A stretch of DNA of 64,000 nucleotides from [Eubacterium] siraeum. Lineage in GTDB: Bacteria > Bacillota > Clostridia > Oscillospirales > Ruminococcaceae. The stretch is from the NCBI GenBank assembly GCA_025150425.1, contig CP102281.1, forward strand, positions 1,240,001 to 1,304,000, read 5' to 3'. Shown here in pieces: positions 52,320 through 59,665 of the stretch; the first letter of the stretch is position 1, and every line of letters starts with the position of its first letter. Both the position numbers and the translations under genes were made by a program. The notes under the pieces were generated by a model. That model had not been told where the DNA came from. It made no database searches and worked only from the letters and a program-made list of their open reading frames with translations.

Positions 52320-53570
52320 ATGCCGTTAGCAGACAGAATACGTCCTTCGACGCTTGATGAGGTTGTTGGACAAAGGCACATCTTAGCGCAGGGAAAACCG
52401 CTTTACAATATCATCAGCAGGGGAAAGATACCCAATATGATATTCTACGGTCCGTCGGGTGTGGGCAAAACCACTGTGGCAAATATTATCGCCCAAAAAA
52501 CAAGTATGAGTCTGTACAGGCTGAACGGTACGCAGGCATCGACATCTGACATAAAGGACGTTGTTGCGAATTTAGGGACATTCGGTGCGGCAGGCGGAAT
52601 TCTGCTTTTCCTTGACGAGATACAATATCTCAATAAAAAGCAGCAGCAGACACTGCTCGAATATATCGAGAGCGGAGAAATAACGCTGATTGCATCTACG
52701 ACGGAGAATCCGTATTTCTATGTATACAGTGCCGTTCTTTCACGCTGTACCGTGTTTGAATTCAAGCAGGTGACGGCGGAGGATATACTTCCTGCGGTGG
52801 AACGTGCATTCAGGCTTATGGGCGAGGAGATGCACACGCAGTTCACGCTTGAGGAAGGCGTTGTAAGCCATATTGCTTACGGCTGCGGCGGCGATGTGAG
52901 AAAGGCGGCAAATACTGTAGAGCTTTGCTGTCTTTCGAGCGAGGACGATACGGTGACGATGGAAACCGCAAAGCTGCTTACGCAGAAGAGCAGTATGAAC
53001 TACGACCGTGACGGCGATCATCATTATGATATTCTGTCGGGGCTGCAGAAGTCGATAAGAGGCTCGGATGAAAATGCGGCGCTTCATTATGCGGCACGTT
53101 TGCTTGCGGCAGGGGATATTACCTCGCTTTGCAGGCGGCTTCTTGTTATAGCGAGCGAGGATATAGGGCTTGCGTATCCTATGGCGGTGCCGATAGTAAA
53201 GGCTTGCGTTGACAGTGCATTACAGCTTGGGCTTCCTGAGGCGAGGATACCGCTGGGCGAAGCGGTCGTTCTGCTTGCGACATCGCCGAAGTCCAACAGT
53301 GCGTATCTCGGTATAAATGCCGCTATGCAGGATGTCGAGGACGGCAAAACAGGAGATATACCCAGACAGCTTCAGAACAAGCATTATGACGGAGAGGGCA
53401 ATGCGGTGAAGGGTCAGCATTATCTTTATCCGCACGACTATCCGGATCATTATGTAAAACAGCAGTATCTGCCCGACGCTATAAAGGACAGGGTCTATTA
53501 TACGTTCGGCGATAACAAATTCGAACAGCAGTCAAAGGTGTATTGGGATAAGATAAAAGGGAAGAAGTAA
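52320..53570 (+). CDS. rarA: Replication-associated recombination protein A (AAA+ ATPase)
   Basis: 416-residue RarA/MgsA/WRNIP1 ATPase acting at stalled replication forks. MPLADRIRPSTLDEVVGQRH at the N-terminus, Walker A GPSGVGKTT, Walker B LLFLDEIQ, sensor 1 STTENP, and the C-terminal tetramerisation domain (HYDGEGNAVKGQHYLYPHDYPDHYV in part). The last 23 codons and the terminator are duplicated 550 bp downstream. Confidence 0.95.
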   Translation: MPLADRIRPSTLDEVVGQRHILAQGKPLYNIISRGKIPNMIFYGPSGVGKTTVANIIAQKTSMSLYRLNGTQASTSDIKDVVANLGTFGAAGGILLFLDEIQYLNKKQQQTLLEYIESGEITLIASTTENPYFYVYSAVLSRCTVFEFKQVTAEDILPAVERAFRLMGEEMHTQFTLEEGVVSHIAYGCGGDVRKAANTVELCCLSSEDDTVTMETAKLLTQKSSMNYDRDGDHHYDILSGLQKSIRGSDENAALHYAARLLAAGDITSLCRRLLVIASEDIGLAYPMAVPIVKACVDSALQLGLPEARIPLGEAVVLLATSPKSNSAYLGINAAMQDVEDGKTGDIPRQLQNKHYDGEGNAVKGQHYLYPHDYPDHYVKQQYLPDAIKDRVYYTFGDNKFEQQSKVYWDKIKGKK

Positions 53571-53601
53571 AAGAATCCGACAGCGTTACTTGCTGTCGGA
53601 T
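53495..53601 (+). repeat. Direct repeat copy A (rarA 3' end plus terminator)
   Basis: 107 bp covering the last codons of rarA and its terminator. It recurs at 54045-54151, offset exactly 550 bp, with about two mismatches. Confidence 0.9.
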
Positions 53602-54044: not shown

Positions 54045-54151
54045 CTATTATACGTTCGGTGATAACAAATTCGAACAGCAGTCAAAGGTGTATTGGGATA
54101 AGATAAAAGGGAAGAAGTAAAAGAATCCGACGGCGTTACTTGCTGTCGGAT
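54045..54151 (+). pseudogene. Duplicated rarA 3' fragment (direct repeat copy B)
   Basis: Encodes the same last residues as rarA (YYTFGDNKFEQQSKVYWDK and on) with the stop at 54118-54120 and a copy of the terminator, but no start or upstream gene. It is a non-functional tail fragment next to the left end of the IS200-type element. Confidence 0.85.
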
Positions 54152-54159
54152 CTTTTTGT

Positions 54160-54890
54160 AGCTTTAGCAAAAATAAACCACCGCTTGAAGCGGTGGAATA
54201 AAAGACTTTAGTAAAAAGCCCTCCTATGATATAATAGAAGTGGGTTTGGCAACCACATGAATATCAAAAGGAGGACTGTCAAATGAATGACAATCATAGT
54301 TTATCACATTCGAAGTGGAATTGCAAGTATCACATAGTATTCGCACCGAAATACCGAAGGCAGGTAGTGTACGGGCAGTTGAAAGCAGATATAGGGAAAA
54401 TACTGCGAACATTATGTGAACAGAAAAAAGTGAATATAATCGAAGCAGAAGCATGCCCGGATCACATACATATGTTGGTGGAAATACCACCGAACATAAG
54501 TGTAGCGCAGTTTATGGGGTATCTAAAAGGAAAGAGCTCATTGATGATATTTGATAGGCATGCAAATTTGAAATACAAGTATGGGAATCGGCATTTCTGG
54601 TGCAGAGGATATTACGTAGATACAGTAGGAAAGAACAAAAAGGCAATAGAAGAATACATAAGAAACCAACTTACAGAAGATATAGCAAACGATCAAATAA
54701 CACTGAAAGAGTATATTGACCCGTTTACGGGTAGCAAGAACCAGTAAGCAAAAAGAAACAGCCACTTGAGTGGCTGCTGTAAATGAGATGCGGTTGCCAG
54801 ACTTTTCAGTGTGCCTTCAGGCACAAGCCGATATTATGCCCTTGAAGGGCAAGTGCATACCACGCGTTCAACGCGTGGTTTTGATTTTGC
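54160..54890 (+). mobile_element. IS200/IS605-family element (tnpA only)
   Basis: The single transposase gene is flanked by subterminal hairpins: left CCACCGCTT / AAGCGGTGG (54178-54196), right CCACGCG / CGCGTGG (54860-54878). After the transposase there are further hairpins (54759-54776; GTGCC/GGCAC; GCCCTT/AAGGGC). There are no terminal inverted repeats of DDE type and no obvious target duplication, as expected for HUH transposition. Exact ends are estimates. Confidence 0.75.
54283..54747 (+). CDS. tnpA: IS200-like transposase (Y1 HUH)
   Basis: 154-residue Y1 transposase: YHIVFAPKYRRQVVYG at the N-terminus, the metal-binding HUH in DHIHMLVEIPP, and the nucleophile Tyr region in GYYVDTVGKNK. 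It cuts and joins single-stranded DNA at hairpin-marked ends. Full length and apparently intact. AAAAGGAGG lies before the ATG. Confidence 0.93.
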   Translation: MNDNHSLSHSKWNCKYHIVFAPKYRRQVVYGQLKADIGKILRTLCEQKKVNIIEAEACPDHIHMLVEIPPNISVAQFMGYLKGKSSLMIFDRHANLKYKYGNRHFWCRGYYVDTVGKNKKAIEEYIRNQLTEDIANDQITLKEYIDPFTGSKNQ

Positions 54891-55790: not shown

Positions 55791-56563
55791 CACTTCTCGG
55801 GTTCGCTATTCGAATCAATGCACTTGTCAATATGAAAGAGGGAGACAACCAAAGGGATCAGGACAAGGGACTTGACAGCCCCTCTCCCTGTCCCTTAGGT
55901 TTTCTCCCTCTTGCTCCCTCTTTCCTTACTCACACCCCCACCCCGTCGGGGTGTTGGATAAACTCGAAAAACCACCCGAACATTGTATATCCTGTTAATG
56001 CAGGGACGCTTAACGCTACACGTCCGCAGGTTAATACATATATCTTAGGTTAGTGGCGTTTTTTTGAAGAGTCAATGTTAGAGCAGTTGCACCGGTATAC
56101 TCACGAAATTATTAATGCCTTGTCGGTACGGAAACTGTTTTAAGCAGTGTTGGCGATATGTTTTACGGTACAGCTTTAATAATCAGTCTGTCGAAAAACC
56201 TATATATTTTTTGAAAATGAGTGTTTAGCGTTGCTTACCAAAAGTTTTGTAGGACGCAAAGCCCACAAAGCGTTCTTATAGGGATAGAGAATTTGCTCTG
56301 TTTTTCATATAAACAGGCTTGTTTTATAAGCAAAGCCGTACTGTTTTTAAGCAGTACGGCTGTAATTTTTAAGACCACCTTGCCGTGGTATGACGATGAA
56401 ACCCGCACATAAAGTACGGTGGGTAACTTTCCCCCGATTGTTTCACGCTCCCTTCTTCCGCAATGGCGGGAGGTCTGCAATCCGCAAACGGAGAGAAATC
56501 CCTATTAAAGAGTGTCGGATCATATGAAATCATACTGAAGCGAACAAGGCAGTGTATTAACTT
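55791..56563. other. Noncoding region with repeats
   Basis: No gene is supported. It has CTCCCTCTT-type short repeats around 55890-55925, an ACCCCGTCGGGGT hairpin near 55940, and the second copy of the AAGCCGTACTG hairpin (56333-56360). It looks like decayed or repeat-derived DNA. Confidence 0.4.
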
Positions 56564-56872
56564 TTATTCTTCCTCTTCGTCAAGCTCCTCAAACACGTTG
56601 AAGAATTCCTTGGCTATACGGTCATATTCTTTATCGTCATCTATTGTTGACAGGTAAACCTCATCGTTCTTGTTTACTTCCTTCAGGATAACGTAAACGT
56701 CGCTGTCGGCGTTCTCGTCTTCTTCTTCGGGAATAACGGCGCAGTATGAGCAACCGTCAACCTCAATGCGTCCGATAAGCTCAAATGTAACGGTATCGCC
56801 GTTTTCGTCCTCGAGGTCTATATATTCGGCAGTGTCTAAGTCGTTGTCTGTGATGTTTTCGATTTCTGACAT
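56564..56872 (-). CDS. DUF1292 family protein
   Basis: 102 residues, very acidic (many D and E, ending LDEEEE). The core YIDLEDENGDTVTFELIGRIEVDG and YVILKEV match DUF1292, a small Firmicute family often near RuvX/alanyl-tRNA synthetase genes and of unknown function. AAGGAAGGAAT lies before the ATG. Confidence 0.8.
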   Translation of the reverse strand: MSEIENITDNDLDTAEYIDLEDENGDTVTFELIGRIEVDGCSYCAVIPEEEDENADSDVYVILKEVNKNDEVYLSTIDDDKEYDRIAKEFFNVFEELDEEEE

Positions 56873-57141: not shown

Positions 57142-57170
57142 TTGACTTATGCCGTTTGATGTGTTATCAT
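57142..57170 (+). promoter_or_regulatory. Promoter of the large noncoding RNA
   Basis: TTGACT (57142-57147), 17-bp spacer, TATCAT (57165-57170). No ORF of note follows for over 800 bp. Confidence 0.65.
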
Positions 57171-57176
57171 ATAGAC

Positions 57177-58004
57177 AAGGAAAAGGAAAGTTCCCCAGAC
57201 AGAATAAAACATCTTCATGCTGACTATTTAACACGATAAAGAGGGTTTTATTCAACATATATACGATTCGGAAACCGTATATAAATAAAGTCGGATAGGA
57301 GGCGAGTCCAATGGGTCAGGAAAAAAGTGAGTCACAGCAGTCTGTTGAGGCTCGCAACATAAAGTAAGACGTGAATAGTACGATGACAATACTCATACGG
57401 TACTCATCGACACACATAATAAAAGGGTTTTGACCTTTAATTGCGAGTAAAACGGCTACCGGACAAAGAAAACAAGAAACCTTATAGCGATTTGAAAAAT
57501 CGCAGATTTCCGCAAAAGCGTTTATTATATACAGCTTTCAAGGTAAATACAGGTAAGGTGATTGAGATGTACAGTTCAAGACATTCAAAGAGGCAGTTCT
57601 ACTGATAACAGCTTAATATCCTGCATCGGCAGAAGTCGACACAGAGGATAAAAAAAGCAGCTGATAAAGCTGAAAGAAGCTGATTTGAGCTCTTAAGGAT
57701 GTGTTTCAAATGGTAATATACGCTGACTGCATAATAAAGCATCTAAGAAAGGTGCTTAACGAAGAAAAACAGTGAGGTATAGTCCAATGTACTGACAACG
57801 TACAGGTAGTGTGAACTACGAAATAATGTAAAAGTCGGTTAAGTTTAACGGCAGACAGGATGTTGGTAGGATGATACCACGATGATGGCTGCAGAATATG
57901 CGAAGAACGCATAAAGCGAGGCAGTAAGCCGATAACCGATTCGACAATTGAATATAACAATAACGGACGGGCTTTGGAGTATGTGTTGCTTCAAAGCCCG
58001 TTTT
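57177..58004 (+). ncRNA. Candidate large structured noncoding RNA (about 830 nt)
   Basis: A promoter, 790 bp without a credible gene, then a terminator (57967-58001). Many short local stems are readable: GAATAAAAC/GTTTTATTC (57202/57245), ATATACG/CGTATAT (57258/57275), CGATGA/TCATCG (57380 region), GCGATTT/AAATCGC (57487 region), AAGCATCT/AGGTGCTT (57737 region), TGTAC/GTACA (57788 region), GTTAA/TTAAC (57838 region), TGGTA/TACCA (57863 region) and ATGCG/CGCAT (57898 region). Size, hairpin density and host suit the ornate large RNAs (ROOL or GOLLD type), but no class is proven. A short ORF (MGQEKSESQQSVEARNIK, from 57311, behind AGGAGG) lies inside. Confidence 0.6.
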
Positions 58005-58005
58005 C
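57967..58005 (+). terminator. Terminator of the large noncoding RNA
   Basis: ACGGGCTTTG pairs with CAAAGCCCGT around a 15-nt loop, then TTT. Confidence 0.8.
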
Positions 58006-58120: not shown

Positions 58121-58372
58121 TCAGTATATTTCCTGTTCAAGATTTCTGAACATATCGTCATCGAAAAAATCCGTAATGCTTATCTGTAGTCCGTCGCAGA
58201 GCTTTTTCAAAGTTACTATACCGATATTTTTGGATTTCATATTGATTATGTCGTTTACGGTCGATTGGGTAACAGCCGAAAGAGTTGCCAGCTTGTTTAC
58301 GGTTATGTTTTTATCCCTGCATAGCTGTAAAATTCGCCTTGAAACTGCTTCGGAAACAGATTTGCATACCAT
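58121..58372 (-). CDS. Small XRE-type regulator
   Basis: 83 residues: a Cro/C1 helix-turn-helix (RILQLCRDKNITVNKLATLS, TQSTVNDIINMKSKNIGIVT, LKKLCDGLQISITDFF). The start at 58372 is about 9 bp after AAAGGA; longer starts are less likely. It is transcribed away from a perfect-consensus promoter flanked by two palindromes (58424-58487), its probable operators. A decayed copy of its 3' part is at 59.5 kb. Confidence 0.8.
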   Translation of the reverse strand: MVCKSVSEAVSRRILQLCRDKNITVNKLATLSAVTQSTVNDIINMKSKNIGIVTLKKLCDGLQISITDFFDDDMFRNLEQEIY

Positions 58373-59536: not shown

Positions 59537-59665
59537 TCCGGTATATTTCCTGTTCAAGATTCCCGTACATATCGTCATCGAAAAAATCCGTAATGGTTAT
59601 CTGAAGTTGTTTGCAGGGAACGGGATCGTGTGCAAGTTCTGTCGGAAAAGTGCAGTTTTTGAATA
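59537..59665. pseudogene. Decayed second copy of the XRE/Cys-rich module
   Basis: Bases 59537-59605 repeat, with changes, the 3' part of the XRE gene at 58.12-58.19 kb (minus strand: TATATTTCCTGTTCAAGATT and the following ATCGTCATCG block). Just after, on the plus strand, about 59627-59665 reads VCKFCRKSAVFE, like VCKLCNKNISENE of the Cys-rich protein. The promoter, operators and gene starts between them are missing, so this is a deletion remnant. Confidence 0.6.

What the first reader, a model, noticed from the sequence alone, without database searches (positions are those of the whole stretch)
57142..58005. ORF-less, promoter-to-terminator unit of about 830 nt: a large ornate RNA candidate
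A sigma-A promoter and a rho-independent terminator bracket about 790 bp with no credible gene, yet dense with short stems and GA-rich loops (at least nine listed in the feature). This is the signature of large ornate RNAs such as ROOL or GOLLD, which occur in gut and rumen Firmicutes and whose role is unclear. It sits in an accessory region between a DUF1292 gene and a regulator module. Class assignment is inference.
Basis: partly seen in the sequence, partly recalled or inferred. Interest (0 to 1): 0.85.

Follow-up and report, generated by a model that had tools for sequence, protein, structure and literature searches.

The report
Structured RNA carrying tiny gene array
This stretch appears to make a large folded bacterial RNA that carries a row of ribosome-landing sites, each followed by a gene of only two to about twenty codons; it belongs to an apparently undescribed RNA family of Clostridia that may work by catching ribosomes.

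Summary
The observation mostly holds: a sigma-A promoter and terminator-like stem bracket about 830 nt of strongly folded RNA (z -5.3) with no long gene. The class guess does not: no Rfam family, ROOL, GOLLD and OLE included, matches even at E 10. "ORF-less" is also wrong: four Shine-Dalgarno/AUG sites at conserved positions open ORFs of 18, 12, 21 and 2 codons. A model of the 5' domain finds the RNA in 30 of 71 genomes of the genus (own included, one doubtful), with covariation. It lies at a conserved locus: 6S RNA, DUF1292 gene, then this RNA, divergent. Using that locus alone, I read 60 flanks from the family. Modules GG-N3-8-CC-V-AUG number 119 on the RNA strand against 25 on the other. 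Of these, 41 of 119 open two-codon ORFs, against 70 of 1359 other AUGs (p 8e-20). The first module's ORF is 13-26 codons in 30 of 34. So this is a folded 5' domain, a ~20-codon ORF whose start sits in a stem, then minigenes. Best mechanism (inferred): it captures initiating ribosomes, a translation counterpart of neighbouring 6S RNA. Rivals: micropeptide mRNA, or sponge for an SD-like binding factor. No expression data were available.

The parts
57142..57170 (+). Sigma-A type promoter, TTGACT-17-TATCAT with extended TG; transcription start inferred at about 57176-57180
   Evidence: present in 12 of 13 rows of the genus alignment
57173..58005 (+). Whole RNA (about 830 nt; ends inferred, no transcript data)
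   Evidence: fold z -5.27; homologues
57198..57292 (+). Folded 5' domain: closing helix 57198-57200 / 57290-57292, hairpin 57202-57210 / 57245-57253 with inner stem 57212-57215 / 57239-57242, hairpin 57258-57265 / 57276-57283
   Evidence: compensatory changes; coordinates worked out
57297..57367 (+). Module 1: SD AGGAGG 57297-57302, AUG 57311, 18-codon ORF MGQEKSESQQSVEARNIK-stop
   Evidence: first-module ORF 13-26 codons in 30 of 34 family flanks
57302..57355 (+). Stem that buries the start codon of module 1: GCGAGUCC-AAU (57302-57312) with GUUGAGGCUCGC (57344-57355); most of the SD lies just outside
57487..57520 (+). Middle hairpin 57487-57503 (sequence changes, stem kept, judged by eye) and conserved CCGC-loop-GCG 57510-57520
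   Evidence: alignment A3; RNAalifold recovered only the CCGC hairpin on A3
57551..57605 (+). Module 2: SD AGGTAAGGTGA, AUG 57567, 12-codon ORF MYSSRHSKRQFY-stop; an in-frame GTG three codons upstream overlaps the SD
   Evidence: (12 codons in 12 of the 13 first-found genus sequences, with TAA, TGA and TAG as stops; the 13th has M-stop)
57695..57775 (+). Module 3: SD AAGGATG, AUG 57710, 21-codon ORF; peptide differs from that of the nearest relative
57774..57795 (+). Module 4: SD GAGG, GGUAUAGUCC, AUG 57787, two-codon minigene Met-Tyr-stop
57966..58005 (+). Terminator-like stem (GGGCTTTG.../...CAAAGCCC) and short T run
   Evidence: not listed by the scan
56564..56872 (-). DUF1292 gene, divergent neighbour (conserved locus marker)
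   Evidence: PF06949 match
56368..56558 (-). 6S RNA, next to the DUF1292 gene
   Evidence: Rfam RF00013, 49.3 bits

Best explanation
It is one member of a conserved, apparently undescribed family of large structured RNAs built as an array of translation-initiation modules. A folded 5' domain leads to a largely exposed Shine-Dalgarno sequence whose start codon is buried in a stem and opens an ORF of about 20 codons. After structured spacers come one to several more modules (GG...CC-V-AUG), many of them two-codon minigenes such as Met-Tyr-stop, then a terminator. Shown by comparison: the RNA-level structure, the array, and constraint on SD-AUG spacing and ORF length. Inferred: ribosomes bind these sites. 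With a stop right after most starts, a ribosome would start and end inside its own footprint and hold one site without building a polysome or much protein. The RNA would thereby sequester or buffer initiating ribosomes (or their tRNAs), much as the neighbouring 6S RNA sequesters RNA polymerase. My odds: anatomy about 0.9, ribosome binding about 0.6, ribosome capture as the purpose about 0.35.
For: Covariation: A2 has 36 cells changed on both sides against 11.8 in shuffles; A4 has 173 against 49. SD to AUG spacing: in 40 RNAs with 372 SD-like sites, AUG peaks at +12, +13, +15 and +16 (38, 32, 48, 13) over a background of about 7; up to 40 of those are the first module that brought the RNAs in. 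Long ORFs are avoided at SD-AUGs: 127 of 129 are 25 codons or fewer, against 379 of 449 other AUGs, p 1.4e-6. Locus-based set (60 flanks picked by DUF1292 only): 119 modules on + against 25 on -; GAGTCCVATG in 26 of 60 against 0 of 60; two-codon ORFs 41 of 119 against 70 of 1359, p 8e-20. First-module ORFs 13-26 codons in 30 of 34, against 66 of 244 other AUGs. Met-Tyr minigenes use TAC or TAT and all three stops. 6S adjacency: window, 12 of 12 genus loci. A published two-codon minigene is translated and affects its mRNA (PMC8708949, passages).
Against: No ribosome profiling, RNA-seq or binding data were available. The start codon of module 1 is predicted to be paired, which would lower initiation there. 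Median ORF length does not differ (11 codons at SD-AUGs, 10 at others); only the long tail is missing. On A2 the number of further pair types is lower than in 499 of 500 shuffles (23 against 26.1), unlike the other four measures. Some late motifs in L053 lack an AUG after GUGAGUCC, so the motif may have a role besides starting translation. The minus-strand control does not match the purine bias of the + strand. Relatives are not independent samples. 7 of 41 intergenic-like flanks have no module in the first-module interval, and 4 of 34 have a first ORF of 2-5 codons. R2 missed relatives that the locus search found, so homology across the family rests partly on position and motif.
Confidence: 0.4

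Rival explanations
1. It is a micropeptide messenger. The first ORF (about 20 codons) makes a functional peptide, and the later minigenes park ribosomes that protect the RNA or tune its decay, as reported for a leader minigene.
For: First-module ORF 13-26 codons in 30 of 34 flanks, many of the 30 peptides printed having E at position 5 and Q/S after it, judged by eye. In one subclade ORF2 keeps the tail RIGPSE/KIGPSE-stop with synonymous codon changes. A leader minigene can stabilise its mRNA (PMC8708949).
Against: Codon-position variation in ORF2 is flat (21, 20, 21 distinct letters). Read by eye, ORF3 differs between the window and G031 by replacements, and in G017 the ORF1 hairpin is kept but read in another frame. 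Peptides differ between genera.
Confidence: 0.2
2. It is a sponge for a factor (protein or C-rich small RNA) that recognises SD-like GGNGAGUCC elements, in the way CsrB/RsmZ titrate CsrA.
For: Repeated near-identical elements, up to about nine by reading L136 and L138; some lack a start codon. CsrA is encoded in this genome. AGGA is modestly enriched in the genus (65 against 51.4 +/- 5.8) and more so in the three AGGAAG-type RNAs (18 against 8.4 +/- 2.8).
Against: CsrA is encoded in 11 of 30 genomes searched; without the 5 Coriobacteria of unresolved homology, 11 of 25. GGA as such is not enriched (genus 140 against 146 in shuffles) and GGA in small loops is within about 1 sd (28 against 22.5 +/- 4.8). 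A generic SD binder does not explain the narrow ORF lengths.
Confidence: 0.17
3. It is a large ornate RNA like ROOL, GOLLD or OLE: a self-assembling scaffold or RNP in which the SD-like motifs are incidental.
For: Size, stems, purine-rich strand, Firmicutes host. GOLLD is reported to bind ribosomes in pull-downs (PMC12286853, passage).
Against: No Rfam match at E up to 10; no phage match; the micro-ORF statistics are unexplained.
Confidence: 0.07
4. It is decayed coding or mobile DNA with chance motifs.
For: The transcript varies in length between species (559-1062 nt in 13) and 54 codons are open in one frame.
Against: Conserved promoter, compensatory changes, conserved locus.
Confidence: 0.01

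Closest known systems
ROOL / GOLLD / OLE large ornate RNAs (Rfam; PMC12286853)
   Same: Large, elaborately folded bacterial transcripts without a long ORF
   Different: No covariance-model match at E up to 10; no phage link found; built around SD-AUG modules
6S RNA (RF00013)
   Same: Direct neighbour at the locus; the suggested logic (decoy of a core machine) is analogous
   Different: RF00013 does not match this RNA; 6S mimics a promoter (recalled), this one displays translation starts
Two-codon minigenes (axe-txe mg2, EHEC LEE1 leader as described in PMC8708949; lambda bar genes, recalled)
   Same: SD plus AUG-codon-stop
   Different: The cases described there are minigenes acting in cis on a downstream gene; here several sit on one terminated, structured RNA
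CsrB/RsmZ sponge RNAs
   Same: Repeated SD-like elements on a structured RNA
   Different: GGA not enriched, CsrA often absent, start codons and ORF lengths constrained
Dual-function small RNAs such as RNAIII or SgrS (recalled)
   Same: Regulatory RNA that contains a small ORF
   Different: One peptide there; here a series of micro-ORFs down to two codons

Membership tests
ROOL / GOLLD / OLE | Match to the Rfam covariance model | tested here: not met
   (E up to 10, 4 hits, none of these); on 8 homologous loci (E up to 1)
ROOL / GOLLD | Phage or prophage context near tRNA islands | tested here: not met
   no tRNA in the window; no phage match; conserved chromosomal locus. One homologous locus, L133, does have a tRNA within 1 kb
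ROOL / GOLLD | Assembly into RNA-only nanocages | not testable with these tools
   needs cryo-EM
CsrB/RsmZ-type CsrA sponge | Multiple GGA in hairpin loops above chance | tested here: not met
   genus GGA 140 vs 146; loop GGA 28 vs 22.5 +/- 4.8; AGGA alone is modestly enriched, 65 vs 51.4 +/- 5.8
CsrB/RsmZ-type CsrA sponge | CsrA encoded by the host | tested here: not met
   11 of 30 genomes (11 of 25 without Coriobacteria); present in this genome
Two-codon minigenes | SD followed by AUG, one codon, stop, above chance | tested here: met
   in the window RNA itself one of the four conserved ORFs is a two-codon one
Two-codon minigenes | Translation and effect on ribosomes or tRNA | not testable with these tools
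   needs ribosome profiling or toeprinting
RNase P RNA (considered for motif resemblance) | Match to RF00010; no other copy in the genome | tested here: not met
   no hit; true RNase P elsewhere, 255 bits
6S RNA | Match to RF00013 | tested here: not met
   RF00013 hits the neighbour at 56368-56558 only

The most novel reading that the evidence does not exclude
A new class of bacterial RNA machine: a terminated, structured RNA that displays a series of minigenes to trap ribosomes in initiation-termination cycles, paired in the genome with 6S RNA, which traps RNA polymerase, so that transcription and translation are damped from one locus.
Probability: 0.3. Interest if true: 0.95.

Novelty: categorically new. 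Interest (0 to 1): 0.86.

Why it matters
No RNA that I know of, and none that matched in these Rfam 15 scans, is an array of minigenes on a structured scaffold. If ribosomes do sit on it, it would be a natural ribosome-buffering RNA in common Clostridia and a new form of global translation control. If peptides are the point, it would be a micropeptide locus overlooked across a family. Either way it becomes testable at once: a cloned 830-nt RNA, four AUGs and simple codon changes.

Tried and rejected
ROOL, GOLLD, OLE and the other Rfam families: no match. RNase P derivative, suggested by the look of GGAGGCGAGUCC: rejected. CsrA sponge: disfavoured, with AGGA modestly enriched against that. Phage origin: no phage match; four viral contigs carry the 18-mer, best R1 match among them E 0.37. 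Conserved peptide in ORF2 or ORF3: weak or absent (for ORF2; ORF3 by eye). Base pairing of the GG with the CC inside each module: suggestive by eye, not claimed and not counted. Coriobacteria (Collinsella, Enorma) RNAs of about 300 nt with the same first motif: R1 gives only E 0.02-0.1 and their last motif lacks AUG; left open and dropped from the 40-RNA test. That test used 40 RNAs with edges chosen by eye; other likely homologues (such as L115, L117, L119, L120, L126, L134, L135, L137 and L036) were left out, the first four because L115 and L119-L120 repeat genomes already in and L117 is near-identical to L115, the others for no stronger reason than unclear ends. Class-wide R2 search: the two hits outside the genus, L141 and L142, are coding false positives. 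L124 does not read as a homologue. The same 18-mer with one change leads a different thing in genus g39, short leader peptides upstream of protein genes. My first count of first-module ORFs had an 8-codon floor that hid four shorter ones; recounted without it.

Full report
The observation. Window 57142-58005 has a sigma-A promoter (TTGACT, 17 nt, TATCAT with TG) and, at the end of the folded transcript, a 17-pair stem followed by TTTTC; the simple terminator scan did not list that stem. The longest + strand ORF listed between has 54 codons from a TTG. The transcript strand is purine rich and folds to -213.4 kcal/mol against -177.4 +/- 6.8 for 20 dinucleotide shuffles, z -5.27.

Known families. 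cmscan of the whole window finds one RNA, 6S, at 56368-56558 on the minus strand. The region itself gives four hits at E up to 10, none a large ornate RNA. Eight homologous loci gave only 6S (four loci) and one tRNA at E up to 1. ROOL, GOLLD and OLE are therefore not supported. RNase P, which one motif resembles, lies elsewhere in the genome at 255 bits. There is no blastn match in 50,697 phage records at E 1e-5.

Homologues. blastn found 13 of 149 related genomes, the window's own included, all in one genus. An exact 18-mer in named genomes gave 37 loci, seven of them from contigs named Ruminiclostridium; several of the 37 are chance matches in protein genes. That the window is close to [Eubacterium] siraeum is my recall, not a call. 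A covariance model of the 5' domain from 13 sequences found 30 of 71 genomes of the genus at E up to 0.001, own included; on reading, L124 is not convincing. A second, shorter model found 13 of 148 in the family, own included, and 4 of 291 in the class; of those four, two are the own genus and two are coding false positives.

Structure. On the MAFFT alignment of 13 sequences, 97.3% of cells pair. Twelve pairs change on both sides (6.6 in shuffles), with 36 such cells (11.8 in shuffles). One measure goes the other way: further pair types 23 against 26.1, reached by 499 of 500 shuffles. Sliding partners by 1-3 columns leaves 25-44% paired. On 30 sequences fitted to the model all five measures favour the structure, with 173 cells changed on both sides against 49; that alignment leans to the structure. 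The 5' domain is a closing helix holding two hairpins. It ends just before the Shine-Dalgarno sequence AGGAGG, and the AUG that follows is in a stem with the end of its own ORF. A single-strand fold does not prove the in-cell state.

Micro-ORFs. In the window four AUGs at conserved positions follow strong SD sequences: 57311 (18 codons), 57567 (12), 57710 (21) and 57787 (Met-Tyr-stop). Three more AUGs pass the same threshold at 57871, 57882 and 57981 and were not matched to relatives. Over 29 homologous RNAs (five of them Coriobacteria), AUGs with an SD numbered 119 against 50.8 +/- 6.9 in 100 shuffles, maximum 68; about one per RNA is there by the way they were found. In 40 RNAs (Coriobacteria left out) with 372 SD-like sites, AUG peaks at the spacing used by ribosomes, while AAG, TTG and CAT do not; up to 40 of the 131 AUGs in the peaks are the first module. 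ORFs at such AUGs are 25 codons or fewer in 127 of 129, against 379 of 449 for other AUGs (p 1.4e-6), though the medians are alike (11 and 10). ORF2 has 12 codons in 12 of the 13 first-found genus sequences, ended by TAA, TGA or TAG; G025 has M-stop. An in-frame GTG lies three codons upstream of that AUG in all 13, inside the SD. The frame upstream is open for 6 to 49 codons, 42 in the window, so a longer protein there is not conserved. Peptide sequences are mostly not conserved. One subclade keeps RIGPSE-stop with synonymous changes, so I do not exclude a peptide function.

Conserved locus. 6S lies beside the RNA in the window and in 12 of 12 genus loci scanned, five of them under Rfam's gathering score, and also in L036, L039 and L053 and, below gathering score, L041 and L111. 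The DUF1292 gene was found in 37 of 49 loci tested, four of which were viral contigs. A DnaD-domain gene was found in 11 of 49.

A test that does not use the RNA sequence. I took flanks upstream of DUF1292. In 40 genomes of the order (picked by me, about one or two per family), all 4 of the own family and all 6 of family f24 carry two or more modules on the RNA strand. Of 30 from other families none has GAGTCCVATG except L184, where it lies inside a 696-codon ORF; looser matches occur in some coding flanks, for instance L189 with 5 on + and 3 on -; two flanks were short. In 60 more genomes of the own family, the first 60 in listed order of 133 with DUF1292 after leaving out four already examined, the module GG-N3-8-CC-V-AUG occurs 119 times on the RNA strand and 25 times on the other. 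At least two modules occur in 36 of 60 against 7 of 60. GAGTCCVATG occurs in 26 of 60 against 0 of 60. Of the 60, 41 have intergenic-like flanks (33 with two or more modules) and 19 have coding-like flanks (3 with two or more). Two-codon ORFs follow 41 of 119 modules and 70 of 1359 other AUGs (p 8e-20). Of the 41 intergenic-like flanks, 34 have a module in the interval 240-620; its ORF is 13-26 codons in 30 and 2, 2, 4 and 5 codons in the other four, against 66 of 244 other AUGs in 13-26. In those 30 flanks, 36 of 60 later modules had exactly two codons. At least two of the 60 genomes had been seen before. The module pattern was written after reading the genus sequences. Relatedness inflates all these p-values.

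Met-Tyr. In the earlier set of 50 RNAs with 125 modules, 37 open two-codon ORFs against 43 of 744 other AUGs (p 3e-13). Nineteen of the 37 are Met-Tyr, with TAC or TAT and all three stop codons. In the 60 new flanks 9 of 41 are Met-Tyr and 12 are Met-Lys with AAA, so the second codon is not fixed across the family. In the 64-kb window the module pattern occurs 11 times on both strands; the only two-codon one is in this RNA.

What it does. The array, the SD and the early stops suggest that ribosomes are meant to start here and not to make much protein. A two-codon minigene in a leader was shown to be translated and may stabilise its mRNA; very short ORFs can tie up peptidyl-tRNA (PMC8708949, abstract and passages). 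I infer a ribosome-capturing RNA that works alongside 6S. The step from binding to purpose is not shown. CsrA titration is disfavoured: CsrA in 11 of 30 genomes, 11 of 25 without Coriobacteria; GGA not enriched, AGGA modestly so.

Novelty. Searches listed no paper on such an RNA; for PMC11109978, PMC12286853 and PMC8708949 I saw passages, for PMC8040213 one reference-list passage, no whole paper. Subscription literature and supplements were not searched, so a prior mention in a supplementary table is possible.

Noticed in passing
window 53495-53601 and 54045-54151: A 107-nt direct repeat, 98% identical: the 3' end of the RarA-like AAA gene (52320-53570) is copied 550 bp downstream, just before a small transposase-like gene at 54283-54747 (IS200-like by recall).
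   Followed up: partly
window 58124-58199 and 59541-59616: A 76-nt direct repeat, 88% identical: a fragment of the 3' end of the HTH-type regulator gene on the minus strand is copied about 1.4 kb away, beyond three small genes.
   Followed up: partly
L047, L050, L051, L055, L057, L065, L067 (Collinsella, Enorma and relatives): Compact ~300-nt candidate RNAs with the same AGGAGGCGAGTCCAATGG start, a 19-20 codon ORF and a 3' GGTGAGTCC-like motif before a terminator-like stem; homology to the Clostridia family unresolved.
   Followed up: partly
L073, L074, L089-L092: In genus g39 the motif AGGAGGGGAGTCCRATGG leads a short leader peptide of the MAHTTDQ-stop type upstream of different protein genes, three or four matches per genome (one, L088, is inside a protein gene); looks like a separate leader-peptide system.
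   Followed up: no
L116: Tandem triplication of one module with near-identical eight-codon ORFs (MEGEYLPL, MESEYLPL, MEGEYLLL), suggesting that arrays grow by duplication.
   Followed up: no
L115, L117, L119, L120, L122: ORF2 ends in RIGPSE, KIGPSE or RIGPAE before the stop with third-position changes, and its start codon reads TTG in L115 and GTG in L117.
   Followed up: partly
L053, L136, L138, L140: A second motif class, GTGAGTCC-like without a start codon right after it, is interspersed with the AUG modules; role unknown.
   Followed up: no
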